Positions 12,384-46,092 of a stretch of 64,000 nt of DNA are shown here, piece after piece (the first letter of the stretch is position 1; each line of letters opens with the position of its first letter). The notes below the pieces were generated by a model that had not been told where the DNA came from, ran no database searches, and saw nothing but the letters and a program-made list of their open reading frames with translations. Location: contig NZ_AP023360.1 in NCBI RefSeq assembly GCF_018326265.1, positions 474,501-538,500 of the forward strand. Reading direction: 5' to 3'. Both the position numbers and the translations under genes were made by a program. Source of the DNA: Catellatospora sp. IY07-71. GTDB taxonomy: Bacteria; Actinomycetota; Actinomycetes; Mycobacteriales; Micromonosporaceae.

Positions 12384-12448
12384 AAGATCGCGGTCTCGTG
12401 TCACAAAGTGCGCCTGGACCACAGGTTCCGACACGAACCGGCGATCAT
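12384..12448 (+). repeat. 65-bp palindromic element, copy A1
   Basis: The outer arms are AAGATCGC and GCGATCAT and the inner arms TCGTGTCA and CGACACGA, arranged symmetrically in exactly 65 bp. It is the first of five intergenic copies. Confidence 0.85.
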
Positions 12449-12477
12449 CACCGCGCGGGTCGCCCGGCGGCGGCAGG

Positions 12478-12542
12478 AAGATCGCCACCTGGTGTCAGAA
12501 AGTGCGGTCCAGGCGCACTTTCTGACACGAGACACCGATCTT
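12478..12542. repeat. 65-bp palindromic element, copy A2
   Basis: This is the most symmetrical copy: it runs from AAGATCGC to CGATCTT and its centre also pairs (AAAGTGCG with CGCACTTT). It follows copy A1 after 29 bp. Confidence 0.85.
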
Positions 12543-12548
12543 GCCCCC

Positions 12549-12590
12549 GGCGGCACGGCGGCACGGCGGCACGGCGGCACGGCGGCACGG
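12549..12590. repeat. 9-bp tandem repeat
   Basis: About 4.7 head-to-tail copies of GGCGGCACG follow element A2 directly. Copy number in such arrays usually varies between strains. Confidence 0.85.
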
Positions 12591-12649
12591 GCCGCCGGCA
12601 CGGCCCGGCGTGGCTGGCCTGGCGCGGTCGGCACGGCCCGGCCGCCGGA

Positions 12650-13630
12650 TCAGGGCCGGGTCGGCAGGGCCGCGTCGAGGACCAGGTCGCCGCGCTCGGC
12701 GCGGCGGCCCAGCACCAGCACGTAGCCGAGGAAGGCACCCCACACCAGCACGCCGATGGCGTCGCGCACCAGCAGCGGCAGGAACGACGGCGTCACGAAC
12801 GCCTCCAGGACGCCCGCCACCGCGAACACCCCGACCAGACCCAGCGCGGCGTGCATACCCTGACGCATCGCGGCGGCCAGCGACTGCCCCCGGGTCAGCA
12901 CCGGCCCCGGCACCACCCAGGCCCAGCCGATCCGCAGGCCCACCCCGGCGGCCACGAAGATCCCGGTCAGCTCCAGCAGCCCGTGCGGGGCGATGAGCCC
13001 GAAGAAGACGTCCGCCCGGCCGTGCCCCACCATCAGCCCGCCGACCAGGCCCACGTTGAGCGCGTTCTGCCAGAGGAACCAGGCCACCGGGACCAGCAGC
13101 ACCCCGGAGGCCAGGCACTGCGCCGCGATCCAGGCGTTGTTCGTCCACACCATCAGCCCGAAGCTCGGCGCGGTGTGCTCGCTGTAGTAAGCCTCGAACT
13201 CGAACTCGACCAGGCGCTCGATGTCCGCCGCGCTCATGCCGAACGACTCGGCGACCCCCGGGTCGCTGTTGACCCACATCCCCACGGCGACGGCGGCGAG
13301 CACGAAGCAGACCGTGGTCCCGTACCACCAGCGGCGCGCCCGGTAGAGCGACAGCGGCAGGTCGTACGCGAGGAAGCGCGGCACGCGCCGCCAGTCCACG
13401 GGCGCGGCGCCGGTGATCGTCGCGCGGGCGGTCAGCACCAGCCGGGACAGCTCGGCCACCAGCGCCGGGTCGGGCGTGCGGCTGCGCACCACGGACAGGT
13501 GGGTGGCCACCCGCTGGTAGAGCAGCACCAGCTCGTCCGCCTCGGCCGCGGTGGGCTTGCGGCGCCGGCTCAGCATCTCCAGCCGCCGCCACTCGCCACG
13601 ATGCTCGGCGACGTACGCGTCCAGGTCCAC
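12650..13630 (-). CDS. Stage II sporulation protein M (DUF95) family protein
   Basis: The 326-residue membrane protein has a soluble N-terminal part (about 1-100) and then roughly six membrane segments, the core of the SpoIIM/DUF95 family. The segment GLIAPHGLLELTGIFVAAGVGLRIGWAWVVP contains the family GxxPHGxxE-like motif. In Bacillus SpoIIM works with SpoIID/SpoIIP in engulfment; in actinomycetes the role is unknown. It diverges from the RDD gene and converges on DUF58, the same strand arrangement as Rv3693-Rv3694c-Rv3695, as I recall it. Confidence 0.9.
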   Translation of the reverse strand: MDLDAYVAEHRGEWRRLEMLSRRRKPTAAEADELVLLYQRVATHLSVVRSRTPDPALVAELSRLVLTARATITGAAPVDWRRVPRFLAYDLPLSLYRARRWWYGTTVCFVLAAVAVGMWVNSDPGVAESFGMSAADIERLVEFEFEAYYSEHTAPSFGLMVWTNNAWIAAQCLASGVLLVPVAWFLWQNALNVGLVGGLMVGHGRADVFFGLIAPHGLLELTGIFVAAGVGLRIGWAWVVPGPVLTRGQSLAAAMRQGMHAALGLVGVFAVAGVLEAFVTPSFLPLLVRDAIGVLVWGAFLGYVLVLGRRAERGDLVLDAALPTRP

Positions 13631-13710
13631 CGCTCGTTCCTCCCGGAGTTCTCCGCCGACCGGGAGCAGCCTAACGGGGACCGTCGAGCGGTGCGTGCCT
13701 GTGATTCACT

Positions 13711-14700
13711 GTGCCGATGCGGCAGGGGCGTGAGGCGGCGGACGGCACCGCCACGGGGCTGGTCAGCGGTGAGGCCGTGCACCTGGAGGTGCGCCTGGCC
13801 CGCGCCGGGTCACGCACGCTGGCCCTGATGCTCGACGTCCTCGCCCAGGTCATGGTGGCGATGCTGCTGCTCCCGTTGCTGACTTTCGGCTTGATGCTGG
13901 TGCTGGGCCCGGACACGGCCAACGTGACGTCCGCGTACATCCTGACGATCGTGCTGGTCGCGGTGGGTTACCCGACGCTGCTGCTGGCGCTGACGCGCGG
14001 GCGCACGCTGGGCAAGCTGGCGATGGGCCTGCGGGTGGTGCGCGACGACGGCGGCCCGATCACGCTGCGCCAGTCGTTCACCCGGGCGCTGGTCGGCGCG
14101 ACGCTGGAGTGGCCCGGCCTGCTGCTGGCGGTGGGCTGGGTGGCGAGCCTGGCCGTGCTGACCGGCTCGCCGCGCGGCAAGCGGCTGGCCGACATGGCGG
14201 CGGGCACCCTCGTGGTGCACGACCGTACGCCGGAGAGCTGGGGCTGGGTGCCGAGCATCCCCCCGCCGCTGGCGCAGTGGGCGACCACGCTGGACCTGAC
14301 CGGGCTGGACGACGAGCTGGCGCTGGCCGCCCGCCACTTCCTCGCCCGCAGCCGCGGCCTGCGCGACCCGCACCGGACGCGCCTGGGCCACGCGCTGGCC
14401 ACCGAGATCGCCGCCTGCACCACGCCCGCCCCGCCGCAGGACACGCCGGGCTGGGCGTACCTGGCCGCGGTCGTCGGCGAGCGGCACCGCCGCGCGGCGG
14501 CCCGGCTGACCCGCGACCGGGCCAGCCACGCGCTGCTCTGGCCGGAGCTGTTCACGCCCGCGCAGACGGTCCCGCAATCCAGGCAGCCGGCCGCCCGGCC
14601 CGGCATCCCCGCACAGTCCGGCTCACCGCCGACAGCCGCGTCCAGCGCCCCGTCGACACCCACCGGTGCGGCGCCACTGCGTTCCGCCGCTCCCCGCTGA
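13711..14700 (+). CDS. RDD family membrane protein
   Basis: The 329-residue protein has the RDD domain with three or four membrane helices (about 30-155). It opens with the typical LVSGEAVHLEVRLARAGSRTLALMLD, in which the conserved Arg and Asp give the family its name, and contains GRTLGKLAMGLRVV. The C-terminal ~130 residues are soluble and end in a Pro/Ser/Ala-rich tail. Function unknown; some relatives transport small solutes. GTG at 13711 and ATG at 13717 are both possible starts; neither has a clear ribosome site. It is divergent from spoIIM. Confidence 0.88.
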   Translation: MPMRQGREAADGTATGLVSGEAVHLEVRLARAGSRTLALMLDVLAQVMVAMLLLPLLTFGLMLVLGPDTANVTSAYILTIVLVAVGYPTLLLALTRGRTLGKLAMGLRVVRDDGGPITLRQSFTRALVGATLEWPGLLLAVGWVASLAVLTGSPRGKRLADMAAGTLVVHDRTPESWGWVPSIPPPLAQWATTLDLTGLDDELALAARHFLARSRGLRDPHRTRLGHALATEIAACTTPAPPQDTPGWAYLAAVVGERHRRAAARLTRDRASHALLWPELFTPAQTVPQSRQPAARPGIPAQSGSPPTAASSAPSTPTGAAPLRSAAPR

Positions 14701-14755
14701 GCGGGGCTTTCACGCCCGGCACGCCTGACTGCGCGTCATCCAGACGAGCACGCCC

Positions 14756-14812
14756 GCCTTTGCTCTGCTTACAGATACGCGACGGTTGCGTATCTGTAAG
14801 CAGAGCAAAGGC
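14756..14812. terminator. Very long perfect hairpin after RDD gene
   Basis: Two 25-nt arms (14756-14780 and 14788-14812) are perfectly complementary around a 7-nt loop. The arms begin GCCTTTGCTCTGC and end GCAGAGCAAAGGC. Lying between convergent genes it can act as a two-way terminator, but the stem is far longer than termination needs. Confidence 0.8.
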
Positions 14813-14817
14813 AAAGC

Positions 14818-14861
14818 CGAAGCTCCCGCCCGGCTGGCAGAACAGCGGGGCGGGAGCTTCG
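14818..14861. terminator. Terminator of sahH
   Basis: A perfect 14-bp stem (CGAAGCTCCCGCCC with GGGCGGGAGCTTCG) with a 16-nt loop lies just before the sahH stop on the plus strand, that is, downstream of sahH. Confidence 0.8.
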
Positions 14862-14879
14862 ATCGAGCAGCTTCCAGGC

Positions 14880-16331
<1,452 letters not shown>

Positions 16332-16435
16332 AGATGAACTCCCAATCGGTCGGCTGACCAGTGCGTGCTACAGCCTACGCCGGGCCGTCCGGAGGGATGG
16401 GCACCGCCTGTCCCCGTGGGTCGGCCGTCTCATAC

Positions 16436-16485
16436 GTGTGGCCCGGTTCCCGGGCGGACCCTCCGCAACGGGAACCGGGCCACAC
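16436..16485 (-). promoter_or_regulatory. 17-bp perfect hairpin upstream of sahH
   Basis: The arms GTGTGGCCCGGTTCCCG (16436-16452) and its exact complement (16469-16485) enclose a 16-nt loop. It lies about 105 bp ahead of the sahH start, so it is either a second terminator of the mannose operon or a leader structure of sahH. Confidence 0.55.
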
Positions 16486-16641
16486 TCCCCCCGGTTTGGT
16501 TCCTCCGCGCGCGCTCGGCTGTGTTGATCCCGATAACGCTGCGTGGTTAAAAGGCTACACTCCGCGTTTCCGCTGTCAAGCAGAACCGTCGAGTCGTACG
16601 GCGCGCCGCGGCGCGACACGTCGGGGGTACCGAAAAACAGC

Positions 16642-16680
16642 CCGCCGGTTGAGAAACGGGATTCGTTTTCAACCAGGCGG
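16642..16680 (-). terminator. Rho-independent terminator of mannose operon
   Basis: On the minus strand an imperfect 16-bp stem (CCGCCTGGTTGAAAACG with its partner) is followed by GCTGTTTTTCGG. The T run makes this one of the most classical terminators in the window. Confidence 0.8.
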
Positions 16681-16708
16681 ACCGTCGTCCGTTGTGGAAC
16701 AGGGCCGC

Positions 16709-17884
16709 TCAGAGCGAGGCCAGATACGCCTCGCCCGCGCCCGAGAAGATCATCTTTCCGCCGTCCGCGGCGCCGAACGCCGCGTCGCCGCCGCCCAGCC
16801 GCGCCGTGCCCGCGCTGTCGGCCACGGTCACCTCGCCCGCGACGCAGAACGCGGTCCGCGGACCCGCCGGGTCCAGTCGCGCCTCGCCCACCGCGCCGTC
16901 CAGCCGCACCCGGTGCAGCCGGAAGTCGTCGACCGGCACCGACCAGGTCACCACGCCCGGGGCGACCGGCTCCGGGTCGCGGACCGGGGCGTGCAGCGGC
17001 TCGAAGCGCAGCACGCGGAGCAGCTCCGGCACGTTCACATGCTTGGGGGTCAGGCCGCCGCGCAGCACGTTGTCGCTGGCCGCCATGATCTCGACACCGG
17101 CCCCGCGCAGGTAGCCGTGCAGGTTGCCGGCGGGCATCCAGATGCCCTGGCCGGGCGCCAGCACCACGTGGTTGAGCAGCAGCGACACCAGCACACCCAC
17201 GTCACCCGGGTAGTCGGAGGCGAGCAGCCGCACCAGGCCGCGCGGCCCGCCGCCGGCCGGCCCGTCCGGCAGGTTCCCGGACGCCGTGACAGCCTCCTCG
17301 ACCAGCTCCGCGCGGGTGTGCGCGGGCCAGGACAGCAGCGCGCGCACCGCCTCGCGCAGGTCGCCCACGGCCAGCGCGCCGACCACCGGCTTGAGCGCCA
17401 TGACGCCCAGCGCGTCCACCAGCTCCGCCGACTCCTCCGCCGGCCGGAACCCGCACAGCGCCTCGAACTCGGTGTACGCCACCAGCAGCTCGGGCTTGTG
17501 GTTGCCGTCGACGTAGCTGCGGTGGGCGGCGTCGCGCGGCACCCCCGCGGCGTCCTCCGCGGCGTAGCCGTCGGCCGCCTGGCGCGCGTCGGGGTGCGCC
17601 TGCAGCGACAGCGAGCGCTCCGCGGCCAGCAGCTTCAACAGGTACGGCAGGCGGGCGCCGAAGCGCCCGAGCGCCTCGGCGCCGAGCAGGTCGCCCGGCG
17701 CCGAAGCGATCACGTCGGCCAGCTGCGCGCCCTCGCCCTCCACCAGGGAGGAGCAGTCGGGATGTGCGCCGACCCACAGCTCGGCCTCGGGTCCCTCGCT
17801 GGGCACGGGGCGGCCCTGGACCCGCGCGATGACCTCGCGCGAGCCCCATGCGTAGGGCCGGATCCGGTTGTGGAGTCGGCGCAC
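16709..17884 (-). CDS. manA: Mannose-6-phosphate isomerase, class I
   Basis: Type I phosphomannose isomerase, 391 residues, interconverts fructose 6-phosphate and mannose 6-phosphate. This zinc enzyme has its N-terminal NRIRPYAWGS, the LWVGAHP segment, a LLKLLAAERSLSLQAHPD metal/active-site region and a VLAPGQGIWMPAGNLHGYL metal-binding segment. The start is GTG at 17884, two bases after the cation efflux gene stop, so it is the last gene of the five-gene mannose operon. Together with ManB and ManC it supplies GDP-mannose. Confidence 0.95.
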   Translation of the reverse strand: MRRLHNRIRPYAWGSREVIARVQGRPVPSEGPEAELWVGAHPDCSSLVEGEGAQLADVIASAPGDLLGAEALGRFGARLPYLLKLLAAERSLSLQAHPDARQAADGYAAEDAAGVPRDAAHRSYVDGNHKPELLVAYTEFEALCGFRPAEESAELVDALGVMALKPVVGALAVGDLREAVRALLSWPAHTRAELVEEAVTASGNLPDGPAGGGPRGLVRLLASDYPGDVGVLVSLLLNHVVLAPGQGIWMPAGNLHGYLRGAGVEIMAASDNVLRGGLTPKHVNVPELLRVLRFEPLHAPVRDPEPVAPGVVTWSVPVDDFRLHRVRLDGAVGEARLDPAGPRTAFCVAGEVTVADSAGTARLGGGDAAFGAADGGKMIFSGAGEAYLASL

Positions 17885-17886
17885 AC

Positions 17887-18825
17887 TCAGCCCTTCTGGT
17901 AGTAGATGTCCGGCTCTAGGTAGATCACCCGAGCGATCGGCACGGCCGCCCGGATCCGGGCCTCCGCCGCGTCGATGCCCTTGGCGACCTCGTCCGCGGT
18001 CTCGTCGTGCCGGACCGCGATCTTGGCCGCGACCAGCAGCTCCTCCGGGCCGAGGTGCAGGGTGCGCATGTGGATCACGCGCTCCACCTCGGGGCCGTCG
18101 ACGATCGCCGCGGCGATCGCCTTGACGTCCTCGTCGGTCGCCGACTCGCCGAGCAGCAGGCTCTTCGTCTCGATCGCCAGGATGATCGCGATGACCACCA
18201 GGAGCAGGCCGATCATCATAGTGCCCGCGGCATCCCAGAGGCCGTTGCCGGTGATGAGGGTCATCGACACGCCGATCAGGGCGAAGATCAGACCCACCAG
18301 CGCGCCGAGGTCCTCCAGCAGGATCACCGGCAGCTCCGGCGCCTTGGCCCGGCGGACGAACTCCTTCCACGACGCCTTGCCGCGGACGGCGTTCGACTCG
18401 ACGATCGCGGTCCGGAAGGAGAACGACTCCAGGATGATCGCGACGACCAGCACGGTCACCGGCAGCCACTGCCAGCTGGTGATCGCGCCCTTGGTCGGCG
18501 AGTGGATCGCCTCCTCGTACTTGTGGAACGCCTCGTAGATCGCGAACAGACCGCCCACGCTGAACAGGACGATCGACACGATGAACGCGTAGATGTAGCG
18601 TTCCCGGCCGTAGCCGAACGGGTGCAGCGGCGTCGCCGCCCGCTGGGCCCGGCGGCCGCCGAACAGCAGCAGCACCTGGTTGCCCGAGTCGGCGACCGAG
18701 TGGATCGCCTCCGCCAGCATCGACGACGAGCCGGACAGGGCCCACGCGATGAACTTCGTGATCGCGATGCCCACGTTGGCCAGCAGCGCCGCGACGATCG
18801 CCTTCGTCCCGCCGCCCGCGCTCAC
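17887..18825 (-). CDS. Cation diffusion facilitator metal transporter
   Basis: The 312-residue CDF-family protein has six membrane segments and a C-terminal cytoplasmic domain (about 215-312). The metal-binding HSVADSGNQ in TM2 matches the family H/D-x-x-x-D pattern, followed by RYIYAFIVSIVLF. CDF proteins export Zn, Mn, Co or Fe in exchange for protons. It lies 2 bp before manA, whose product needs zinc, which hints at a shared metal theme. The metal cannot be assigned from sequence alone. Confidence 0.92.
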   Translation of the reverse strand: MSAGGGTKAIVAALLANVGIAITKFIAWALSGSSSMLAEAIHSVADSGNQVLLLFGGRRAQRAATPLHPFGYGRERYIYAFIVSIVLFSVGGLFAIYEAFHKYEEAIHSPTKGAITSWQWLPVTVLVVAIILESFSFRTAIVESNAVRGKASWKEFVRRAKAPELPVILLEDLGALVGLIFALIGVSMTLITGNGLWDAAGTMMIGLLLVVIAIILAIETKSLLLGESATDEDVKAIAAAIVDGPEVERVIHMRTLHLGPEELLVAAKIAVRHDETADEVAKGIDAAEARIRAAVPIARVIYLEPDIYYQKG

Positions 18826-18868
18826 GCCCGCGCTCCGTACATGTAGTTGTTGAGCTCGCCTCGCCTGC

Positions 18869-20074
18869 TCACTTGCGCAACTGCTCCTTCAGCTCCGTGA
18901 CGGCCGGCACCGCCATCGGATCCAGGCCATGCCCGAGGCCGAGGTAGACCGAGGCGAAGTCAGTCGCCGCGACCAGTGAGGCGAACCGCTCCAGCGCCGA
19001 TCCGCCCTCGGCGGTGAGCACGTCCACCTCGATCCCGCGCCTCGCCGCGATGTCCTGCACCACCTCGGCTCGCCGGTCCGTCGTCTGCGCCGCACTGTTC
19101 TCGTCGGCGAGACCACCGTCGCACAGCAGCACCACGCGCAGACGCGAGGGGTCCTCGGTCACGCCGTCAAGGTCAGGATCAGCGAAGATGTCCCGCTCGG
19201 CCGCCGCCAGCGCGCCGAACACGCCGTCGAGCAGACCCACCCGGCCGCGCCCGGCCTCGCCGAGCGCGTCGGTCACGATGGGATAACGGGCGTTGGCCGA
19301 CAGCATGTCGCCGAAGCGCACCGCCGCGACCGCCGCCAGCGGCGAGTCGCCCCAGATCACCGGCACCGAGCCGGCCAGGTTCAGGGCCAGCGTCTTGGCC
19401 CGGTTGACGAACGTCTCCGCGGTCGGGCGGCAGCGGTCGGCCTCCTGGTCCAGCCGGGTCGCGCTCTCCGCCAGGTCCGCCTCGTTCACCTTCACCAGGC
19501 CCAGCGCACGCGCGGTGAGCAGCACCGGGACCGTCAGGCCCCACAGGTTCGCCCGCGCCGCGCCGCGGCGCGGCACCGGGATGAACGGCGCGCGGTAGCG
19601 CTCGGCCACCGACTGCAGCGGCGAGCCCGGCGCGCCGATGCCGATCAGCCGGGCCCCGCGGCGGCCCGCCGCCTCGGCCACGGCCAGCGCCTCGGGCGAG
19701 CGGCCCGAGGCCGACACGGCCAGCACCACGTCCGCCGCGCCGATCCAGGCCGGCACCTCCACGCTGCGGTGGGTCAGCACCGGCACGAGGCAGCGCGGTC
19801 CCGCGATGGTGGTCAGGATGTCGCCGGTACGCGCCGCGGTGCCCGCGCCGACCACGACCACGGCCCGCGGCCGGCCCTCGTCGGCCAGGTGCGTCAGGTC
19901 CACCTCGGCGGTCAGCGAGGTCGCCTCGCGCACCTGCGCCCCGGCCGACGCGATCGCCCGGAGCATGCCCCCGGGGTCGCGCGCGGCCAGGGCCGGTGCG
20001 TTGTCCAGCAGCGCCTCGTCGAAGAAGCGGTTGCCGCGTACGCCCGCGGCACCGTCGATCGGAGCACCCATCAC
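18869..20074 (-). CDS. SIS domain protein, phosphoglucose/phosphomannose isomerase type
   Basis: The 401-residue protein has a sugar isomerase (SIS) fold with AVSASGRSPEALAVAEAA in the phosphosugar site. Its C-terminal half resembles the bifunctional phosphoglucose/phosphomannose isomerases (NLAGSVPVIWGDSPLAAVAAVRF). Its place, equal to Rv3256c between manA and manB as I recall, suggests mannose 6-phosphate metabolism. GTG at 20074 overlaps the Trm112 stop; ATG at 20071 is an alternative. Activity is unproven, since such actinobacterial copies are divergent. Confidence 0.85.
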   Translation of the reverse strand: MMGAPIDGAAGVRGNRFFDEALLDNAPALAARDPGGMLRAIASAGAQVREATSLTAEVDLTHLADEGRPRAVVVVGAGTAARTGDILTTIAGPRCLVPVLTHRSVEVPAWIGAADVVLAVSASGRSPEALAVAEAAGRRGARLIGIGAPGSPLQSVAERYRAPFIPVPRRGAARANLWGLTVPVLLTARALGLVKVNEADLAESATRLDQEADRCRPTAETFVNRAKTLALNLAGSVPVIWGDSPLAAVAAVRFGDMLSANARYPIVTDALGEAGRGRVGLLDGVFGALAAAERDIFADPDLDGVTEDPSRLRVVLLCDGGLADENSAAQTTDRRAEVVQDIAARRGIEVDVLTAEGGSALERFASLVAATDFASVYLGLGHGLDPMAVPAVTELKEQLRK

Positions 20075-20253
20075 TCACCCGCCGGGGCGTCGAGCACCTC
20101 GTCGAGCAGCAGCACCGGCAGGCCATCCCGGACCGGGTACACCCGGCCGCAGGAGGTGCAGGTCAGCGTCTGCGCGTCGGGGTCGTGCCGCAGCGGGGCG
20201 TGGTCCTCCGCCGGGCAGGCGAGCACTTCGAGCAGTTGCGGGGCGAGCGACAC
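20071..20253 (-). CDS. Trm112 family small zinc-ribbon protein
   Basis: This 60-residue protein starts with LAPQLLEVLACPAEDHAPL and carries a second cysteine pair, TCTSCGRVYPVRDGLPVLL, typical of the Trm112/UPF0434 family. Eukaryotic Trm112 activates methyltransferases; the bacterial role is unclear. One of the four usual zinc Cys is replaced by the acidic stretch after CPAED. It overlaps the SIS gene by four bases and follows manB by 39 bp. Confidence 0.88.
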   Translation of the reverse strand: MSLAPQLLEVLACPAEDHAPLRHDPDAQTLTCTSCGRVYPVRDGLPVLLLDEVLDAPAGE

Positions 20254-26059: not shown

Positions 26060-26115
26060 AAAAGGAAGGGCACCTTCTTAACGCTATGCGTAGAGGAAGG
26101 TGCCCTTCTTAACGC
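26060..26115 (+). repeat. GGAAGGGCACCTTC repeat, locus B1
   Basis: Two units, AAAGGAAGGGCACCTTCTT and GAGGAAGGTGCCCTTCTT, each followed by AACGC, can fold on each other with a 13-bp stem. It lies directly behind gabT and likely acts as its terminator. Confidence 0.85.
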
Positions 26116-26158
26116 CCGTCCGCCCCACGGTGGACCTGGGCCACCGGGCAGCCACGCC

Positions 26159-26223
26159 AAGATCGCGACTTCGTGTCACAAAGTACGGCCCAGCCCTAGG
26201 TCTGGACACGAACCAGCGATCAT
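26159..26223 (+). repeat. 65-bp palindromic element, copy A3
   Basis: It runs from AAGATCGC to GCGATCAT, with TCGTGTCA and GGACACGA inside, between the convergent gabT and saccharopine-dehydrogenase-like genes, 43 bp after repeat B1. Confidence 0.85.
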
Positions 26224-38498: not shown

Positions 38499-39838
38499 CC
38501 AGCCTCTGGTCCGACACCGCGGGCGGGGCCGGCGCGCCCCGCCCGCCCCTGCCCGGCGACCTGGACGCCGACGTGGCGATCGTGGGAGCCGGCTACACCG
38601 GCCTGTGGACGGCGTACTACCTGCGCCGGGCCGACCCGGGCCTGCGTATCGCGATCGTCGAGGCCGCGCACGCCGGGTTCGGCGCGTCCGGCCGCAACGG
38701 CGGCTGGTGCTCCGGGCTTCTCCCCATCTCCCTGCCCAGGCTGGAGAAGCTGCACGGCCGGGCCGCCGCGATCGCGTTCCAGCAGGCGATGATCGACACG
38801 GTGGACGAGGTCGGCCGGATCGCCGCGGCCGAGGGCATCGACTGCGACTGGGCCAAGGGCGGCACCCTGGGCCTGGCCCGCAGCGCGGCACAGTGGCGCG
38901 CGGCGCGGGCCGAGGCGGCGCTGGCCGCGTCGTACGGCTTCGACCTGCACCTGCTCGACCGGGCCGCGACGCTGGACCGCTGCGGCGCGACGTCGGTTCA
39001 CGGGGCGACCTGGTCGCCGCACTGCGCGGCGGTACACCCGCTGCGCCTGGCCCTGGGGCTGGCCGCGACGGTCGAGCGGCAGGGCACGGTGATCTACGAG
39101 GGGACTCGGGCGCTGGAGCTGGCGCCGGGGCGCGTGCGCACCACGTACGGCACCGTGCGGGCCCCGTACGTGGTCCGGGCCACCGAGGGGTACACGCCCG
39201 ACCTGCCCGGACACCGGCGCGACGTGGTGCCGGTCTACTCCCTCATGATCGCGACCGAGCCGCTGCCCAAGACCTTCTGGGACGAGGCCGGGCTCGACCG
39301 CCGGGAAACCTTCACCGATCACCGGCGCATGGTGATCTACGGCCAGCGCACCGCCGACGACCGGCTCGCCTTCGGCGGGCGCGGCGCCCCGTACCACTTC
39401 GGCTCGGCGGTCCGCCCGTCGTTCGACCACGAGCCGTCCGTGCACCTGGCCCTGCGGAACACGCTCACCGACCTGTTCCCGGCGCTGGACGGCGCGAAGC
39501 TCACCCACGTCTGGGGCGGCCCGCTCGGCATCGCCCGTGACTGGCACCCGTCCACCGGCCTCGACCGCGCCACCGGCCTCGCCTGGGCCGGCGGCTACGT
39601 GGGCGACGGCGTCGCCGCCGGCAACCTGGCCGGCCGCACCCTCGCCGACCTCATCACCGGCCACGAGTCGCCGCTCACGGTCCTCCCCTGGGTCAACCAC
39701 CGCTCCCCCCGCTGGGAGCCCGAACCCCTCCGCTGGCTGGGCATCAACACCGCCCTGCACGCCGTAGCCACCCTCGACCGCCTGACAAAGGAAGGGCACC
39801 TTCTTAACGCTTTCCGTAAAGGAAGGGCACCTTCTTAA
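38495..39838 (+). CDS. FAD-dependent amine oxidoreductase with repeat-derived C-terminus
   Basis: The 447-residue DAO-family protein has the FAD motif IVGAGYTGLWTAYYLRR (about 30), GFGASGRNGGWCSG and a C-terminal GGYVGDGVAAGNLAGR. It is paralogous to the gene at 27616 and a candidate polyamine oxidase. The GTG overlaps the aminotransferase stop (GTGA). The final ~17 residues (from LTKEGHLLN) and the TAA are read from repeat locus B2. The natural tail was therefore replaced or extended when the repeat arrived. The FAD core is intact, so it may still work. Confidence 0.87.
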   Translation: MTSLWSDTAGGAGAPRPPLPGDLDADVAIVGAGYTGLWTAYYLRRADPGLRIAIVEAAHAGFGASGRNGGWCSGLLPISLPRLEKLHGRAAAIAFQQAMIDTVDEVGRIAAAEGIDCDWAKGGTLGLARSAAQWRAARAEAALAASYGFDLHLLDRAATLDRCGATSVHGATWSPHCAAVHPLRLALGLAATVERQGTVIYEGTRALELAPGRVRTTYGTVRAPYVVRATEGYTPDLPGHRRDVVPVYSLMIATEPLPKTFWDEAGLDRRETFTDHRRMVIYGQRTADDRLAFGGRGAPYHFGSAVRPSFDHEPSVHLALRNTLTDLFPALDGAKLTHVWGGPLGIARDWHPSTGLDRATGLAWAGGYVGDGVAAGNLAGRTLADLITGHESPLTVLPWVNHRSPRWEPEPLRWLGINTALHAVATLDRLTKEGHLLNAFRKGRAPS

Positions 39839-39842
39839 CGCT
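39787..39842 (+). repeat. GGAAGGGCACCTTC repeat, locus B2
   Basis: Two direct copies of AAAGGAAGGGCACCTTCTT followed by AACGCT are spaced 31 bp apart. The repeat encodes the end of the upstream oxidoreductase, including its TAA stop at 39836-39838. Confidence 0.9.
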
Positions 39843-39874
39843 CACTGTGCGGCCTGCCGGGCGCCTGGCCGCCG

Positions 39875-39939
39875 ATGATCGCTAGTTCGTGTCACAACCT
39901 CAGGTCTGGCCACAGGTTCTGACACGAACCCGCGATCTT
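39875..39939 (-). repeat. 65-bp palindromic element, copy A4
   Basis: It runs from ATGATCGC to GCGATCTT, so compared with A1, A3 and A5 it lies in the opposite direction. The inner arms are TCGTGTCA and TGACACGA. Its left neighbour is repeat B2 and its right neighbour B3. Confidence 0.85.
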
Positions 39940-39972
39940 GCCCGAGGCCGGATATCACAGACCGGCGGCACA

Positions 39973-40025
39973 GTTAAGAAGGGCACCTTCTACTACGGAA
40001 AACGATAAGAAGGTGCCCTTCCTTC
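39973..40025. repeat. GGAAGGGCACCTTC repeat, locus B3
   Basis: The inverted arms AAGAAGGGCACCTTCT and AGAAGGTGCCCTTCCTT form a 14-bp or longer hairpin directly behind the DUF3499 stop, where it can serve as terminator. Confidence 0.85.
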
Positions 40026-40028
40026 GCC

Positions 40029-40391
40029 TCAATTGGGGGGGATGACGCGGAGGTGGCCGCGGCGGCCGGGGGTGGGTGGGCCGGGGTAAGGCGGCGGCTC
40101 CGGGGCCTGGCGCGGGGCGGGGCGGGCCGCCTCGCGGACGGCCTCGGCCAGGGCGACCAGGTCGTCGGTGGTGGGCGGCGGCGGCTCGAACTCGCCGTCG
40201 TGGCGGACCAGGTCCCAGCCGCGCGGGGCGGTCAGGCTCAGCGCGTGCGGCTCGCACAGGTCGTACGTGTGCGGTTCCTGGTACGCGGCGAGCGGGCCGA
40301 CCACCGCGGTGGACTCGGCATAGACATAGGTCAGCGTCGCGACCGCCTGCCGTTGGCAGCCGTTACGAGAGCAACGCCGTGGAGACCTCAC
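40029..40391 (-). CDS. DUF3499 family protein
   Basis: The 120-residue protein has the conserved start RSPRRCSRNGCQRQAVATLTYVYAESTAVVGPLA and a second metal-like part, HTYDLCEPHALSLTAPRGW. This suggests a small Cys/His metal site; function unknown. It matches Rv3258c by position next to the metallopeptidase-like gene and whiB2. The GTG at 40391 starts the conserved part and lies 8 bases after a -10-like TAACGT on the minus strand, indicating a leaderless transcript; ATG at 40421 would include that element. Confidence 0.88.
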   Translation of the reverse strand: MRSPRRCSRNGCQRQAVATLTYVYAESTAVVGPLAAYQEPHTYDLCEPHALSLTAPRGWDLVRHDGEFEPPPPTTDDLVALAEAVREAARPAPRQAPEPPPYPGPPTPGRRGHLRVIPPN

Positions 40392-40499
40392 GGCGTGTGA
40401 CGTTATCGCCCCGCCGGGCATCGGTGAACCGGAAACGCCGCGACACGCCGAGGGAAGGATCACGCCCCCGTACCGGGGCCCGCGACTGGCGCGCGGGGA

Positions 40500-40505
40500 T
40501 ACATT
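40500..40505 (+). promoter_or_regulatory. -10 element TACATT, leaderless promoter
   Basis: TACATT ends 6 bases before the GTG at 40512, the spacing expected when transcription starts on the first coding base. No ribosome site is present. No -35 box is clear. Confidence 0.5.
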
Positions 40506-40511
40506 GGCGAA

Positions 40512-40958
40512 GTGACCAGTCCCGCCCGCCGCCGCCCGACCCTCGCCCGCCGCCGCCGTGACCGTCACGGCAGGGGGATGCGAGGCCGGCTGGTGCCCGC
40601 GAGCGTGCCCCTGGCGCGCACCAAGGCCGAGGTGTTCGACGAGCTGGTGCTGGACACGGTCGAGTCGCTCGAGGCGCGGTTCGCCAACGAGCTGGCCGGG
40701 GTCGAGTTCGCCGTCGAGGACGTGCCGCCGGATCTGAACGTGTACGACTCCGACGTGCTGGAGGACGGGCGGGTGCCGCTGGCGCGGCTGCTGCCGGGAC
40801 GGCCGGGCCGGCACGGGGTGCCGCCGCGGATCGTGGTCTACCGGCGTCCGCTGGAGTTCCGGGCCTCAGATCGGGACGACCTGGGCGAGCTGGTGCGTGA
40901 CGTGATCGTGGAGCAGGTCGCGAACCTGCTCGGGCTCAACCCCGACGACCTGGCCTGA
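40512..40958 (+). CDS. Metallopeptidase-family protein lacking the zinc motif
   Basis: The 148-residue protein matches the small zincin-like family found next to DUF3499 and whiB2 (Rv3259 position). It has LVLDTVESLEARFANELAGVEFAVEDVPP and the strand IVVYRRPLEFRASDRDDL. Where the family has HExxHHxG, this protein has EQVANLLG: all three zinc-site residues are changed (H to E, E to Q, H to N). It is unlikely to be a protease. The GTG start agrees with the leaderless -10 at 40500. It diverges from the DUF3499 gene. Confidence 0.82.
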   Translation: MTSPARRRPTLARRRRDRHGRGMRGRLVPASVPLARTKAEVFDELVLDTVESLEARFANELAGVEFAVEDVPPDLNVYDSDVLEDGRVPLARLLPGRPGRHGVPPRIVVYRRPLEFRASDRDDLGELVRDVIVEQVANLLGLNPDDLA

Positions 40959-40982
40959 GCCCTCGGCGACACGCTGAACCGC

Positions 40983-41024
40983 GGAAGAGCTGCCGGGCCG
41001 TCCCCCAACGGCCCTGGCAGCTTC
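40983..41024. terminator. Bidirectional terminator before whiB end
   Basis: A roughly 18-bp stem with one bulge (GGAAGAGCTGCCGGGCCGT with ACGGCCCTGGCAGCTTCC) lies between the convergent metallopeptidase-like and whiB genes. Confidence 0.75.
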
Positions 41025-41031
41025 CACGTCT

Positions 41032-41289
41032 TCAGACCGCGCGCCGCTTGAGCTTGCGGCGCTCGCGCTCGGACAGTCCACCCCAGATGCCGAAGCGCTC
41101 GTCGTGCGAGAGCGCGTACTCCAGGCACTCGGACTTGACCTCGCAGCGCGAGCAGATGCGCTTGGCCTCGCGGGTAGAACCACCCTTCTCAGGGAAGAAC
41201 GCCTCCGGGTCAGTCTGGGAGCACAGTGCGTGCTCCTGCCACTCGGGCGCGTTGCCCAGCAGATCCGCCACGACGGGGCGACCGTCCAT
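41032..41289 (-). CDS. whiB2: WhiB-family iron-sulfur regulator, WhiB2/WhmD type
   Basis: The 85-residue protein has the four cluster-binding cysteines Cys23, Cys46, Cys49 and Cys55, the G-[I/V]-W-G-G turn (FGIWGGLSERER) and a basic C-terminus (RRKLKRRAV). The block QTDPEAFFPEKGGSTREAK is typical of WhiB2/WhmD, which with sigma factor controls septation and sporulation genes. The ATG at 41289 has an ideal AAGGAGG site; the upstream in-frame ATG at 41397 lies near the expected transcription start. Position beside F420 and DUF3499 genes matches whiB2 in mycobacteria. Confidence 0.93.
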   Translation of the reverse strand: MDGRPVVADLLGNAPEWQEHALCSQTDPEAFFPEKGGSTREAKRICSRCEVKSECLEYALSHDERFGIWGGLSERERRKLKRRAV

Positions 41290-41608
41290 CTCCGCTGCCT
41301 CCTTATTGCGCGCCGACACACGGTCGGCGCAACCCCCCACCTGGGAAGCGTTTGTCCACATAGGCGGTTTTGTGGATGCCGCTACCTCCAGCCCCACGCA
41401 AAATTACACGTGTGTCGTACGTGCACCGTCAAGCTCACTCTGGTACACGTCCGGCAGGGCCGTTCGGCTCGGTCTGCACCGTCCCGCCACTGCCCTATCG
41501 ATTCAGACCCGAAACCGGTGACGGCATGTCGGGCGTGTCGCGACGAAATTCTGCTGGCGTGTCGAACTTGACGGACGGCGCTGACGGTCTTCGGACAGAA
41601 GTGTTCGG
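41290..41608 (-). promoter_or_regulatory. whiB promoter and leader
   Basis: On the minus strand a good promoter reads TTGACG (41427-41432), 18 bases, TGTAAT (41403-41408), giving a leader of about 105 nt. Within the leader are TTGTCCACA (41352-41360) and, inverted, TGTGGATGC (41371-41379), which resemble DnaA boxes. Beyond the promoter, up to the FO synthase stop at 41609, I see no gene. Confidence 0.6.
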
Positions 41609-44197
41609 CTAGCGGGCGTAACTCGTGGTACGCCGGCGAGCGGGGCGGCCCGCGGCCGCCGCGATGGCCTCCAGCTGTTCCACCGTACGTGCCGAGCCGT
41701 GCGCCGACCCGGCCATCCGGGAGATCGTCTCCTCCATGAGGGTGCCGCCGAGGTCGTTGCAGCCGCCGTTCAGCATGGCCACGGTGCCCTCGTCGCCCAG
41801 CTTCACCCAGGAGCACTGGATGTTGGGGATGCGACCGTGCAGCAGCAGCCGGGCCATCGCGTGCACGACCCGGTTCTCCCGCCAGGTGGCCCCGGCGCGG
41901 GCGATGCCGGCCAGGTAGATCGGCGCGTTGGTGTGCACGAACGGCAGCGCCACGAACTCGGTGAACCCGCCGGTGCGGTCCTGCACCCCGGCCAGCACCC
42001 GGAAGTGGCCCAGCCAGTGCCGCGGGTGGTCGACGTGGCCGTACATCATCGTGGAGCTGGATCGGATGCCCAGCCGGTGCGCCGCCTCGACGGTCTCCAC
42101 CCAGGCGGAGGTGGGCAGCTTGCCCTTGGTCAGCACCCAGCGCACCTCGTCGTCGAGGATCTCCGCGGCGGTGCCCGGGATGGTGTCCAGCCCGGCCTCC
42201 CGCAGTCGGGTCAGCCACTCCACGACGGGCACCCCCGCCTTCGCGGCCGCGGTGACGATCTCCATCGGCGAGAAGGCGTGCACGTGCATGCCCGGCACGC
42301 GCTCCTTCACCGCGCGGACCAGCTCCGGGTACACCGAGACGGGCAGCTGCGGGTCGATGCCGCCCTGTACGCACACCTCGGTGGCGCCGTCCCGCCAGGC
42401 CTCCTCGGCCCGGTCGGCGACCTGCCCGATGCTCAGCCGGTACGCGTCGGCGTCCCGCTCGCGCTGCGCGAACGCGCAGAACCGGCAGCCCACGTAGCAC
42501 ACGTTCGAGAAGTTGATGTTGCGGTTGACCACGTAGGTGACGTCGTCGCCGACGGTGTCCCGGCGCACGTCGTCGGCAATGCGGCACAGCTCGTCCAGCG
42601 CCGCCCCGTCGGCGTGCAGCAGCGCCAGCGCGGCATCCTCGTGCACCGGCTCCAGCAGCGCCGCCGGATTCTCCCGCGCGACACGCAGCCCCGCCGCGAG
42701 CGCGCCCACGCTGACCGCCGGGCCGGCCTGCCCAGCCACCGGACCTGCGCTCGTCGCGTCCGGGCTCATGTAGCCGATCGCTGAACCCGCGGTCGTGCCG
42801 TCCGCTGCCGCGAGGCCCGCCGCTTCTCCGATCGCCGACCAGTCGCCGTAAACGGTGTCGAAGTCGCCGCGGCGGTCGTCCGAGCGGCCCCCGGCGTCGA
42901 TTTCCCGATGCAGGTCGATCCGGCCCGTGCCGCCCTCCACCTCGGGCTCCTGCCAGGGGCGCCCGGTGACGGGTGCGTCCGCCACGGCCATGCCGCCCCC
43001 GTCGGCCAGGGCGCGCACGTGCGGGTGAAGTCGCGGGTCGATCCACCGGTCCGCGCCGCGCACGTATCCCGGATACACCGTCAGCCGCTCGCGCAGCTCG
43101 AACCCGGCGGCCTTCGTCAGATCCGCCAGCTCGTCCAGGTGCGGCCAGGGGCGCTCGGGGTTCACGTGGTCGGGGGTGAGCGGCGATACGCCGCCCCAGT
43201 CGTCGATGCCGGCCTTGACCAGCAGCTCGAACGACGCGTCGATGAGATTCGGCGGGGCCTGGATGCGCATACCGGGCCCGAGCAGCAGCCGGGTCACGGC
43301 GACGGTGGCGGCCAGGTCGCGCACCGAGGCGTCGGGAGTGGAGCGCATCGCCGTGTCCGGCTTGGCCCGGAAGTTCTGCACGATCACCTCCTGGAGGTGC
43401 CCGTACTCGCGGTGACTGCGCCGCATCTCGAAGATCGCGTCGACCCGCTCGGCGTGCGTCTCGCCGATGCCGATCAGGATGCCCGTGGTGAACGGCACCC
43501 CGACCCGGCCCGCGTCGGCCAGCACCCGCAGCCGGACCGCCGGCTCCTTGTCGGGCGAGCCGTAGTGCGGCCCGCCCGGCTCCGACCACAGCCGCGTCGC
43601 GGTCGTCTCCAGCATCATGCCCATGCTCGGCGCCACCGGCCGCAGCCGCTGCAGCTCCGCCCAGCTCAGCACGCCCGGGTTCAGGTGCGGCAGCAGGCCG
43701 GTCTCCTCCAGCACCGCGATCGCGACCGAGCGCAGGTAGTCCACCGTGGAGCCGTAGCCGCGCGCGTTCAGCCACTCCTGCGCGGCCGGCCACCGCTCCT
43801 CCGGCCGGTCACCCAGCGTGAACAAGGCCTCCTTGCAGCCCAGCGCCGCGCCCTGCCGCGCGATGGCCAGCACCTCGTCCCGGTCCAGGTAGGCCGCGGG
43901 CAGCCGGTGCGGCACCGTCGCGAACGTGCAGTAGTGACACCGGTCACGACACAGCCTGGTCAGCGGGATGAACACCTTCTTCGAGAACGTGATCACACCG
44001 GGCCGCCCGGCGTCGCGCAGGCCCGCGTCGCGTACCCCCGAAGCAAGCAAGAGCAGCTCGTCGAAGGCCGCACCATGGGCACTGAGCAGGGCGGTCGCCT
44101 CCGCGGCGTCCAGTGCCCGCCCGGCTGCGGCGCGCTTCAGCGCGCGCGCCACCTCCGCGTCGGTGACCTTGGACTGGGCGGCGACCTCGCTGGACAT
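41609..44197 (-). CDS. fbiC: FO synthase (fused CofG-CofH)
   Basis: The 862-residue protein fuses two radical-SAM domains. The CofG half has C83-x3-C87-x2-C90 (CRDRCHYC); the CofH half has C567-x3-C571-x2-C574 (CYVGCRFC). Together they build 7,8-didemethyl-8-hydroxy-5-deazariboflavin (FO), the chromophore of F420, from tyrosine and a pyrimidine precursor of riboflavin synthesis. A linker of about 95 residues joins the halves. The ATG at 44197 gives the family length. Unlike mycobacteria, where fbiC is elsewhere, it sits beside cofD and cofE, divergent from them. Confidence 0.96.
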
Positions 44198-44255
44198 GCC
44201 CGCCAGCCTACGACCCTGGCCCCGCCGCCCTCCCCCGGTGGGAGAGGATGTCGCC

Positions 44256-45212
44256 ATGCGGATCGTGGTGCTGGCAGGCGGCATCGGCGGGGCGCGCTTC
44301 CTGTCGGGGGTACGGGCACACGCCCGCGCCACCGGCGCCGAGGTGACCGCCGTCGTCAACGTGGGCGACGACGTGTGGATGCACGGGCTGCGCATCACCC
44401 CCGACCTGGACTCGGTCATGTACACGCTTGGCGGCGGCATCGACCCCGAGCGCGGCTGGGGCCGCGCGGGCGAGACCTGGACCGTCAAGGAGGAGCTGGC
44501 CAAGTACGGCGCCGAGCCCACCTGGTTCGGCCTCGGCGACCGCGACATCGCCACCCACCTGGTCCGCACCCGCATGCTCAACGCCGGCTACCCGCTCTCG
44601 GCGGTCGTCGCCGCGCTGTGCGACCGCTGGCAGCCCGGCATCACCCTGCTGCCCGCCACCGACGACCGGGTCGAGACCCACGTCGTCGTCACCGACGCCG
44701 ACGGCTCCCGCGCCATCCACTTCCAGGAATGGTGGGTACGCCACCGCGCCGCCCTGCCCGCCGAGCAGTTCCGCTTCGTCGGGGCCGACACCGCCAAACC
44801 CGCGGCCGGGGTGCTCGACGCGCTCGCCGCCGCCGACGTCGTGCTGCTCGCCCCGAGCAATCCCGTCGTGTCCATCGCGCCCGTGCTCGCCGTGTCCGCC
44901 CTGCGCGAAGCGCTCGTGTCCGGCACCGCGCCCGTCGTCGGCGTCTCCCCCATCATCGGCGGCAGCCCCGTCCGCGGCATGGCCGACAAGTGCCTCGCCG
45001 CGATCGACGTCCCGTGCACCGCCGAGGGCGTCGGCCGCCTCTACGGCGCGCGCGCCGCCGGTGGCGTACTCGACGCCTGGCTCGTTGACACCGGCGACGC
45101 CGCCGCCGACGTGCCCGGCGTACGCGTCGGCGCCGCGCCCCTGTGGATGACCGACGACGACGCCACCGCCGCCATGGTCCGCGCCGCGCTCGAACTGGGA
45201 GGAGCCGCATGA
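44256..45212 (+). CDS. cofD: 2-phospho-L-lactate transferase (CofD/FbiA)
   Basis: The 318-residue enzyme joins FO with the activated phosphoenolpyruvate/phospholactate donor to form (dehydro-)F420-0. It begins with [18 protein letters not shown], the nucleotide-binding loop of the family, and has [26 protein letters not shown] and [13 protein letters not shown]. The ATG at 44256 follows GGAGAGG. It ends overlapping cofE by four bases (ATGA). Confidence 0.96.
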
Positions 45213-45973
45213 TCGACGGGTTCACCGTGCTCGCCGTCCGGGGCATCCCCGACGTGCAGCCCGGCGACGACCTCGCCAAGCTCATCGTCACCGCCGCCCC
45301 GTGGCTCGCCGACGGCGACATCCTCGTGGTCACCAGCAAGATCGTGTCCAAGGCCGAGGGCGCCCTGGCCGACGTGCCCCCCGGCGGCCCCGAACGCGAG
45401 GAGGCCCGCGAGCGCATCCTGCGGTCGCAGACCGCCCGCGCCGTCGCCACCCGCGGCCACACCCGCATCGTGCAGACCCACCACGGCTTCGTCATGGCCT
45501 CGGCGGGCATCGACAACTCCAACGTGGACCGCACCCAGCTCGTGCTGCTCCCCGAGGACCCCGACCGCTCCGCCCGCGCTCTGCGCCAAGCGCTGCGCGA
45601 CGAGTACGGCCTCGACGTCGCGATCATCGTCAGCGACACCATGGGCCGCCCGTGGCGCAACGGGCTCACCGACGTGGCCCTCGGCTGCGCGGGCATCGAA
45701 CCCCTGCGCGACCACCGCGGCGAGACCGACCCCCACGGCAACGAACTCCAGATCACCCAGATGGCCGTCGTCGACGAGCTGGCCGCCGCCGCCGAGCTGG
45801 TCAAGGGGAAGATCGACCGGGTGCCGGTGGCGGTCGTCCGCGGCCTGCTCACCGCCACCCGCGACAGCAACGGCGTCATCCCCACCCTGATCCGCGACGC
45901 CGAACACGACCTCTTCTCCCTCGGCACCGCCGAAGCCCGCGCCGAAGGCCGCCGCGAGGCGACCGGCACCTAG
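45209..45973 (+). CDS. cofE: Coenzyme F420:L-glutamate ligase (CofE)
   Basis: The 254-residue ligase adds glutamates to F420-0 with GTP. Motifs include VVTSKIVSKAEG, ASAGIDNSNV, VSDTMGRPWRNGLTDVALGCAGI. Mycobacterial FbiB carries an extra C-terminal nitroreductase-like domain that reduces dehydro-F420-0; this protein stops after the ligase domain, so that step must be done by another gene. ATG at 45209 has GGGAGGAG. CofC/FbiD, which makes the donor, is not in the window. Confidence 0.95.
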   Translation: MIDGFTVLAVRGIPDVQPGDDLAKLIVTAAPWLADGDILVVTSKIVSKAEGALADVPPGGPEREEARERILRSQTARAVATRGHTRIVQTHHGFVMASAGIDNSNVDRTQLVLLPEDPDRSARALRQALRDEYGLDVAIIVSDTMGRPWRNGLTDVALGCAGIEPLRDHRGETDPHGNELQITQMAVVDELAAAAELVKGKIDRVPVAVVRGLLTATRDSNGVIPTLIRDAEHDLFSLGTAEARAEGRREATGT

Positions 45974-46027
45974 CCCACCCACCCCACCCCGACCCCCACC
46001 GCAGCGCGCAGCGCCGCCGCCCCAGCC

Positions 46028-46092
46028 AAGATCACTGTTTCGTGTCCAAAAGTGCGGCTGGGCCGTAGGTTTTGACACGAGACCGCGATCAT
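46028..46092 (+). repeat. 65-bp palindromic element, copy A5
   Basis: It runs from AAGATCAC to GCGATCAT with inner arms TCGTGTCC and TGACACGA, 54 bp behind cofE and ahead of the secretion-like trio. The rest of the 278-bp gap holds a TTATCCACA sequence (46112-46120) and a possible -10. Confidence 0.85.

What the first reader, a model, noticed from the sequence alone, without database searches (positions are those of the whole stretch)
12384..46092. Five copies of an exactly 65-bp palindromic intergenic element
Copies at 12384-12448, 12478-12542, 26159-26223, 39875-39939 and 46028-46092 are all 65 bp. All share outer arms AAGATCGC/GCGAT(C)(A/T)T and inner arms TCGTGTCA/TGACACGA at constant spacing, while the centre varies. 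Constant length with conserved arms and a variable centre points to selection for structure or for a protein that binds both arms. All are intergenic, four of five between convergent genes, and one lies in the other direction. I know no named element with this pattern; it may be a non-autonomous mobile element, a REP-type repeat or a chromosome-organising site.
Basis: partly seen in the sequence, partly recalled or inferred. Interest (0 to 1): 0.8.

Follow-up and report, generated by a model that had tools for sequence, protein, structure and literature searches.

The report
Genus-wide 65-bp palindromic DNA site
One genus of soil bacteria carries up to a few hundred 65-letter mirror-image DNA sites at the ends of its genes; they look like docking places for an unknown protein that evolution protects copy by copy, rather than a jumping DNA parasite.

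Summary
The five 65-bp palindromes are real, and the own genome (8.6 Mb) has about 280 copies against 0 in the control. All 11 genomes searched from the genus, Catellatospora, carry them (19-263 by a generic pattern). Outside it I found 4 convincing copies, in two genomes of two other genera.

Length is nearly fixed: 33 of 34 left half-sites in 864 kb have their partner at exactly 65 bp. In 19 orthologous pairs from a sister species, 18 core columns differ at 1 of 342 cells, other columns at 161 of 893. Tandem copies are spaced in multiples of about 10.5 bp. Co-directional copies show no G-U over A-C preference (93 vs 89). No target-site duplication was seen, and five of the 11 genomes lack any Y1/RAYT-type transposase.

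Best reading: a genus-specific DNA site for an unidentified dyad-binding protein at transcription-unit 3' ends, including rRNA operons (12 of 25), probably a transcription or topology boundary. The protein and the boundary role are inferred. It is not a RAYT-dependent REP.

The parts
12384..12448 (+). Copy 1 of the 65-bp palindrome, between a convergent DUF58 gene (10872-12359 +) and SpoIIM gene (12650-13630 -)
12478..12542 (-). Copy 2, 94 bp from copy 1 (9 helical turns), same convergent intergenic region; the pair is retained at 94 bp spacing in sister species G002
26159..26223 (+). Copy 3, between convergent genes, beside a second palindrome family (AAGGTGCCCTT, see Noticed in passing)
39875..39939 (-). 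Copy 4, between a + gene ending at 39838 and a DUF3499 gene (40029-40814 -)
46028..46092 (-). Copy 5, 54 bp after the stop of an F420 ligase-family gene (45143-45973 +), before another + gene
12386..12402 (+). Example of the half-site unit GATC-N8-GTGTC (left half of copy 1)
12430..12446 (-). Partner half-site of copy 1 (GACAC-N8-GATC)

Best explanation
The element is a near-fixed-length (65 bp) dyad-symmetric DNA site made of two inverted half-sites (W-GATCG - variable 4-5 bp - TCGTGTC or TTTSNGGTC - AA..TG.GG), recognised as B-form DNA by an oligomeric sequence-specific protein that I could not identify. SHOWN: copy number, length, 3'-end placement, in-situ conservation of the core, 10.5-bp phasing of tandem copies, no wobble asymmetry, near restriction to one genus, concerted change of the two arms between species. 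INFERRED: that a protein binds; that neighbouring complexes touch or loop on one face of the helix; that the bound site is a two-way boundary at transcription-unit ends (RNA polymerase roadblock or insulator, or a place where transcription-driven supercoiling is handled), which would explain convergent gene pairs and the ends of rRNA and ribosomal-protein operons; that the concerted arm changes come from template switching within the imperfect palindrome. I put about 0.85 on 'functional DNA site, not an active transposon' and about 0.35 on the boundary role.
For: 280 copies vs control 0. 35 of 35 copies counted in 864 kb are intergenic (two overlap a gene end by 4 bp); 16 convergent (expected about 6-7, p=2e-4 by counts; tandem pairs are not independent), 4 divergent. 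Wider set of 243 distinct contexts: 117 convergent, 91 co-directional (79 of 91 nearer the upstream stop), 12 divergent, 23 unassigned, 2 inside predicted genes. 19 G000-G002 orthologous pairs: 1 of 342 differences at 18 core columns vs 161 of 893 elsewhere; larger sets 5/700 vs 330/1350, 0/196 vs 98/378, 5/560 vs 458/1080 (core 14 columns vs centre). Ungapped matrix scan of 864 kb: 34 copies at 65-95 bits, one at 29.5, nothing else above 0. All 29 tandem spacings: R=0.81 at 10.5 bp, p about 5e-9; 24 kept after dropping repeats: R=0.91, p about 2e-9. G-U 93 vs A-C 89 in 91 co-directional copies read along transcription. An element starts within 450 bp after 12 of 25 5S genes with enough downstream sequence; in the own genome 3 of 4, against 42 of 766 gene 3' ends (5.5%). 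Copies also lie between the L1 and L10 genes and beside the S12 gene, with counterparts in G001 and G002.
Against: No binding protein was found and nothing was measured. The two arms change together between species (162 both-changed cells vs 122 simulated; 200 of 238 WC-start cells stay WC), which a simple operator does not predict and which would equally suit selection for a cruciform or hairpin; even between G000 and G002, where double changes are not in excess, 16 of 23 WC-start double changes end WC (35% expected). G002 counterparts were recognised by motif, so lost or degraded copies are under-counted: 25 of 35 rows had a counterpart (at most 23 distinct elements); the other 10 were absent, shifted, degraded or unmapped. 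rRNA flanks are paralogous, so 12 of 25 are not independent events, and G004 and G010 have none (0 of 5). Eight of the 24 kept spacings are exactly 105 bp, so the phasing rests partly on one peak (10 distinct values alone: p about 5e-4); the two most out-of-phase spacings, 108 and 279, were among the five dropped.
Confidence: 0.55

Rival explanations
1. RNA hairpin: a two-way intrinsic terminator or mRNA 3'-end stabiliser; conservation acts on base pairing in the transcript.
For: 3'-end and convergent placement; all five window copies fold better than shuffles, z -4.1 to -8.7; arms co-vary in 70 copies from five other species (z 11.6) and change in concert.
Against: No G-U over A-C excess in the transcribed sense (93 vs 89); GATC and GTC positions are nearly invariant rather than exchangeable as pairs; in G000 the inner halves are statistically independent; 10.5-bp phasing of tandem copies is a DNA property; no U-tract at the element ends read.
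Confidence: 0.15
2. Non-autonomous mobile element (REP/RAYT-type, MITE, or insertion-sequence-derived ends) that spread in the genus.
For: Copies must have been copied to new places: a G001 counterpart was found for 5 of 35 own-genome copies by exact scan and 3 more by matrix, against 25 of 35 in G002; tandem amplification occurs (L180, L231). Y1_Tnp genes occur in 6 of 11 genus genomes and 0 of 6 other family genomes searched.
Against: No target-site duplication (59 copies); few decayed copies; core conserved in place; G002, G005, G007, G008 and G009 lack Y1_Tnp yet have 48-263 copies; 538 half-site hits lie in full copies, and the 13 others are indel or degraded copies (6), contig ends (3) or half-plus-full arrays (4). 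No transposase search was made beside those 13.
Confidence: 0.15
3. Cruciform- or single-strand-hairpin-dependent DNA site: the extruded palindrome itself is recognised (as single-stranded attC hairpins are by integron integrases, recalled).
For: Compensatory WC-to-WC change in both arms, 84% vs 34% expected; the uncoupled centre (cols 26-40) would be the loop.
Against: Coupling is nearly lost in G000 and double changes show no excess between G000 and G002 (24 vs 29 simulated) although the core stays conserved; phasing of neighbours fits duplex DNA.
Confidence: 0.1
4. Sites kept by drive rather than function (for example uptake- or transfer-biased recombination, as for DNA uptake sequences).
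For: Hundreds of intact dispersed copies with lineage-specific variants (GTGTC vs NGGTC).
Against: In-situ divergence at non-core columns shows the copies are not simply overwritten; no uptake system was examined.
Confidence: 0.05

Closest known systems
REP elements / BIMEs (GTAG and CGTC superfamilies; PMC3733652)
   Same: High-copy intergenic palindromes, mostly at gene 3' ends between convergent or unidirectional genes, clustered in tandem; E. coli REPs are reported gyrase targets (abstract and passages).
   Different: 65 bp instead of 20-40 bp with 5-13 bp stems; no GTAG/CGTC tag; present in genomes without a RAYT; core conserved in place; 10.5-bp phasing between neighbours.
Dispersed protein-binding chromosomal sites (matS, parS, KOPS; recalled)
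   Same: Genome-wide sequence-specific sites kept by selection, uneven along the ori-ter axis.
   Different: Known sites are much shorter (recalled) and bound by known proteins; here 65 bp with two boxes per half, placed at transcription-unit ends and sparser near ter.
Eukaryotic rDNA terminator/fork-barrier sites (TTF-I Sal box, Reb1; recalled) and bacterial protein roadblocks (PMC10310618, start of abstract in the listing only)
   Same: Would be a protein-bound block downstream of rRNA genes.
   Different: No protein known; the bacterial element is palindromic and dispersed over about 280 places.
Integron attC sites (recalled)
   Same: Outer and inner conserved arms, covarying stem, variable centre.
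   Different: Near-fixed length, dispersed single or tandem copies; no integrase association tested; recognised boxes differ.

Membership tests
REP element | 20-40 bp with 5-13 bp stem | tested here: not met
   65 bp for 33 of 34 left half-sites in 864 kb
REP element | GTAG or CGTC unpaired tag at one end | tested here: not met
   Ends are WGATC/GATCW in the 59 own copies (one with a changed C) and, by the search pattern, in the 70 others
REP element | Associated RAYT (Y1_Tnp) gene | tested here: not met
   PF01797 absent from 5 of 11 genus genomes: G002, G005, G007, G008, G009; the one own-genome hit at 5919117-5919482 has no copy in tile L291 (5900001-5920000), which ends 0.5 kb past it
REP element | Intergenic, 3'-end placement | tested here: met
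MITE / insertion-sequence remnant | Target-site duplication | tested here: not met
   59 copies, offsets -2 to 7, lengths 2-12, best z 2.3 among 110 tests
MITE / insertion-sequence remnant | Related autonomous element with the same ends | tested here: inconclusive
   13 half-sites outside full copies in 2.48 Mb, none left over as a clear lone end; no transposase search beside them, and most of each genome was not scanned for lone halves
RNA hairpin (terminator) | Wobble G-U tolerated over A-C in the transcribed strand | tested here: not met
   93 vs 89 in 91 co-directional copies
Known Rfam RNA | Match at gathering score | tested here: not met
   0 matches in the window
Protein-bound chromosomal site | Helical phasing of neighbouring sites | tested here: met
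Protein-bound chromosomal site | Identified cognate protein | not testable with these tools
   No candidate found; genus-specific proteins could not be enumerated here

The most novel reading that the evidence does not exclude
Catellatospora has a dedicated, sequence-specific two-way transcription (and perhaps replication) boundary system: an oligomeric protein on 65-bp dyads, cooperatively phased on the helix, placed after rRNA, ribosomal-protein and many other transcription units, comparable in role to TTF-I/Reb1 at eukaryotic rDNA and without a bacterial precedent that I know of.
Probability: 0.2. Interest if true: 0.92.

Novelty: new variant of a known kind. Interest (0 to 1): 0.75.

Why it matters
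High-copy bacterial palindromes are often treated as selfish DNA. Here many copies keep their core letter for letter in place while the rest drifts at about the intergenic rate, and neighbouring copies obey the DNA helical repeat. That makes a concrete, testable case for a chromosome-wide site family with one unknown reader protein, limited almost to one genus, and links it to the ends of strongly transcribed units. It also offers a natural data set on how the two arms of imperfect palindromes evolve in concert.

Tried and rejected
REP/RAYT origin: rejected. Target-site duplications: none. Insertion-sequence ends: none seen, not conclusive. RNA hairpin as the selected form: disfavoured by the wobble test, although arms co-vary. 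Spacer inversion, which template switching can cause (PMC8604942, abstract and outline), was looked for and not seen: 0 of 51 close pairs, 2 of 104 pairs in all, against 8.4% of random pairs; so the template-switch reading of arm homogenisation rests on arm changes alone. Viral origin: 0 stretches in viral contigs with an exact 22-base pattern that needs TTC in both arms. Other taxa: an outer-arm pattern in 397 genomes of the order (the own genome the only one of its genus) gave 0-3 hits per genome elsewhere; those printed look like chance matches, the listing was cut. The first pattern I wrote was misregistered and returned 0. A first column-permutation control overstated the concerted arm changes; the rate-corrected simulation is the one to use. 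Genes beside some widely shared sites and some sites between divergent genes gave no DNA-binding candidate. Literature: nine searches showed no paper on such an element in Catellatospora or its family in the rows I saw (titles and starts of abstracts); only open-licence papers are held.

Full report
OBSERVATION. The five 65-bp palindromes are at the stated places. The symmetric pattern finds these five only, at 0 mismatches, against 0.02 expected. The own genome, one contig of 8,595,826 bases, has 280 copies at up to 3 mismatches and 278 at up to 2; of the 59 read in full, 58 match all 18 fixed letters. Half-sites searched on their own in 864 kb pair at exactly 65 bp in 33 of 34 left cases; among four unpaired right halves are one 65-bp copy with a mutated outer arm, one 64-bp copy and one about 67 bp long. 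An ungapped position-weight matrix separates 34 copies at 65-95 bits and the 64-bp copy at 29.5 from everything else at or below 0; it misses the 67-bp copy, which I did not count further. In the wider held sequence 8 of 256 hits (repeats not removed) score between 20 and 60 bits, so degraded copies exist but are few.

TAXON. An exact outer-plus-inner pattern in the collection of 84,980 species genomes gave 86 stretches, all Catellatospora (80 rows, all 86 in the locus list). A generic pattern counts 253, 201, 263, 52, 30, 48, 19, 119, 178, 130 and 40 copies in G000-G010; the GTGTC pattern with up to 2 mismatches gives 278, 110, 281, 81, 43, 4, 5, 87, 5, 17 and 39, so neither count is complete. 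In one search, 13 of the 139 other family genomes have 1-3 hits; one printed locus of each was inspected and those of G073 and G074 are palindromic relatives. One search (43 genomes, 41 of other genera) found 1 copy in G073 and 3 in G074, and none in the other 39. In an order-wide test of 397 genomes the hits printed outside the own genome looked like chance.

ANATOMY. Half-site consensus in the own genome: A W G A T C G C N R K Y T C G T G T C R R A A N S T G N G G Y C (118 half-sites). The strongest couplings are between neighbouring columns (24-25, 41-42, 54-55, 11-12), not across the dyad; exceptions are columns 31-35, which are anti-complementary, and weak pairing at columns 9-12 (z 3.2). 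In five other species (70 copies pasted) the halves co-vary strongly (z 11.6 overall) at columns 2-25 and not at 26-32, also within each of the GTGTC and NGGTC classes. Where orthologous copies from different species are compared, both arms change together more than a rate-corrected model predicts: 24 vs 14.5 among other species and 162 vs 122 between G000/G002 and others. Of WC-start double changes (each pair counted in both directions) 26 of 31 and 200 of 238 end as WC pairs, against 34% expected. Between G000 and G002 there is no excess of double changes (24 vs 29), though 16 of 23 WC-start ones end WC (35% expected). In the centre (26-32) no set has a significant excess of double changes, though between G000/G002 and others 36 of 48 end WC. 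So arm pairing has mattered, or arms have been homogenised, over the genus, and this is weak in the latest split of this lineage, where the core sequence is nevertheless kept.

IN-SITU SELECTION. For 35 own-genome copies, 29 coding anchors were sought in G002 and G001. In G002, 25 of 35 rows have an element in the mapped interval (at most 23 distinct elements, since two pairs of own copies point to the same one); 3 have no mapped region; in the remaining 7 the exact scan found none (one is a degraded copy, one lies at a shifted position). In G001, 5 of 35 by exact scan (4 distinct) and 3 more by matrix. In 19 G002 pairs (6 of the 25 with doubtful pairing left out) the 18 core columns differ in 1 of 342 cells and the other 47 columns in 161 of 893; the 40-bp flanks on each side matched at 69% of positions counting gaps as mismatches. 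In larger automatic sets the 14 core columns differ in 5/700, 0/196 and 5/560 cells and the centre in 330/1350, 98/378 and 458/1080. Counterparts were recognised by motif, so these figures favour conservation somewhat. No clean insertion or empty-site boundary was seen in the seven alignments read.

PHASING. Neighbouring copies in held genus sequence are 94 (3), 104 (3), 105 (8), 106 (3), 108, 114, 115 (3), 125, 126 (2), 127, 147, 159 and 279 bp apart, 29 pairs. For all 29 the resultant at 10.5 bp is 0.81, p about 5e-9. For 24, after dropping by hand one orthologous pair, three repeats within arrays and the 279-bp pair (whose spacer holds a degraded third copy), it is 0.91, p about 2e-9; for the 10 distinct values p about 5e-4. 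Apart from one orthologous pair and two arrays, the spacers compared (22, those up to 115 bp) are not alike. Four loci have a half-site followed by a full site with GATC-to-GATC 41 bp (L014, L022, L142, L149; L142 may be the ortholog of L022). This is a property of duplex DNA and suggests proteins on one face.

PLACEMENT. In 864 kb (my own simple gene finder) 35 of 35 counted copies are intergenic, two of them overlapping a gene end by 4 bp: 16 convergent, 15 co-directional, 4 divergent, where convergent regions make up 17% of intergenic length (p 7e-5; divergent depleted, p 0.01). In 243 distinct contexts of the genus 117 are convergent, 91 co-directional, 12 divergent, 23 unassigned; 79 of 91 co-directional copies are nearer the upstream stop; 2 overlap predicted genes. 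Copies lie between the L1 and L10 genes and beside the S12 gene, each with a counterpart in G001 and G002. Of 31 5S rRNA matches in 9 of 11 genomes, 30 loci were read and 25 have enough downstream sequence; 12 of 25 have an element over 25 bits starting within 450 bp (G000 3/4, G003 3/4, G008 3/4, G007 2/3, G001 1/2, G004 0/3, G005 0/3 with one weak, G010 0/2). In the own genome 42 of 766 predicted gene 3' ends (5.5%) have one within 450 bp. The rRNA flanks are paralogous within a genome, so the cases are not independent.

RNA OR DNA. If the transcript's hairpin were selected, G-U should outnumber A-C in the transcribed orientation. In 91 co-directional copies they are 93 and 89; outside G000/G002 32 and 31. 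With the phasing this points to DNA.

CHROMOSOME. dnaA is at 1,435,246. In a 72-copy subset picked by one base 55 lie in the origin half and 17 in the terminus half (KS p 3e-6). None of the subset lies within 0.3 Mb of the point opposite the origin, but a copy outside the subset does, in the tile at 5.60-5.62 Mb. The gradient may reflect young accessory DNA near the terminus rather than function.

MECHANISM. I therefore read the family as a genus-specific protein-binding site at transcription-unit ends. The protein is unknown. A roadblock/insulator or a supercoil-handling site are the two boundary roles I consider; present data do not separate them. Arm homogenisation by template switching is a published mutational process (PMC8604942, abstract and outline read; PMC8794818, start of abstract in the listing only), and would explain concerted arms without pairing selection; spacer inversion, one of its marks, was not seen.

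KNOWN KINDS. REPs share placement and copy number but differ in size, tags, transposase association and, as far as tested, conservation (PMC3733652, abstract, outline and twelve passages). I found no description of this element in the listings; most subscription papers are not held.

Noticed in passing
window about 26065-26130; 44 of 51 core matches in the 864 kb held are intergenic: A second palindromic intergenic family with AAGGTGCCCTT/AAGGGCACCTT cores (about 50 bp, TTAAGAAGGTGCCC...). It shares intergenic regions with the 65-bp element more often than chance (6 of 30 vs 6 of 307 regions of at least 100 bp) and also occurs after a 5S gene.
   Followed up: partly
L014, L022, L142, L149: A lone half-site followed by a full element with GATC-to-GATC distance 41 bp, about four helical turns.
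   Followed up: partly
L342 9010-9742: The single copy in G073 lies beside a decayed reading frame that, from recalled motif (Cys-rich zinc ribbon), resembles a large serine recombinase; not scanned against a library.
   Followed up: partly
L180, L231 (C. bangladeshensis): Arrays with homologous spacers (four copies 126-127 bp apart in L180; three copies 105-108 bp apart listed in L231), a sign of local tandem amplification.
   Followed up: no
L326, L330, L333, L336, L338 (G008) and L327 (G009): In G008 and G009 the arms are kept (GATCGCNGTTTCCGGTC and similar) while the centre looks largely unrelated to that of the other species, so the centre may not be needed.
   Followed up: no
G000:C1:5919117-5919482: A Y1_Tnp gene with an open frame of 150 codons (IS200-like size) in the own genome, with no element copy in tile L291; related genes in 5 other genus genomes, some broken.
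   Followed up: partly
L035 vs L165 and several G001-G000 sites: At the same locus both inner arms switch class together (GGGTC/GACCC in one species, GTGTC/GACAC in another) with flanks about 84-96% identical.
   Followed up: partly
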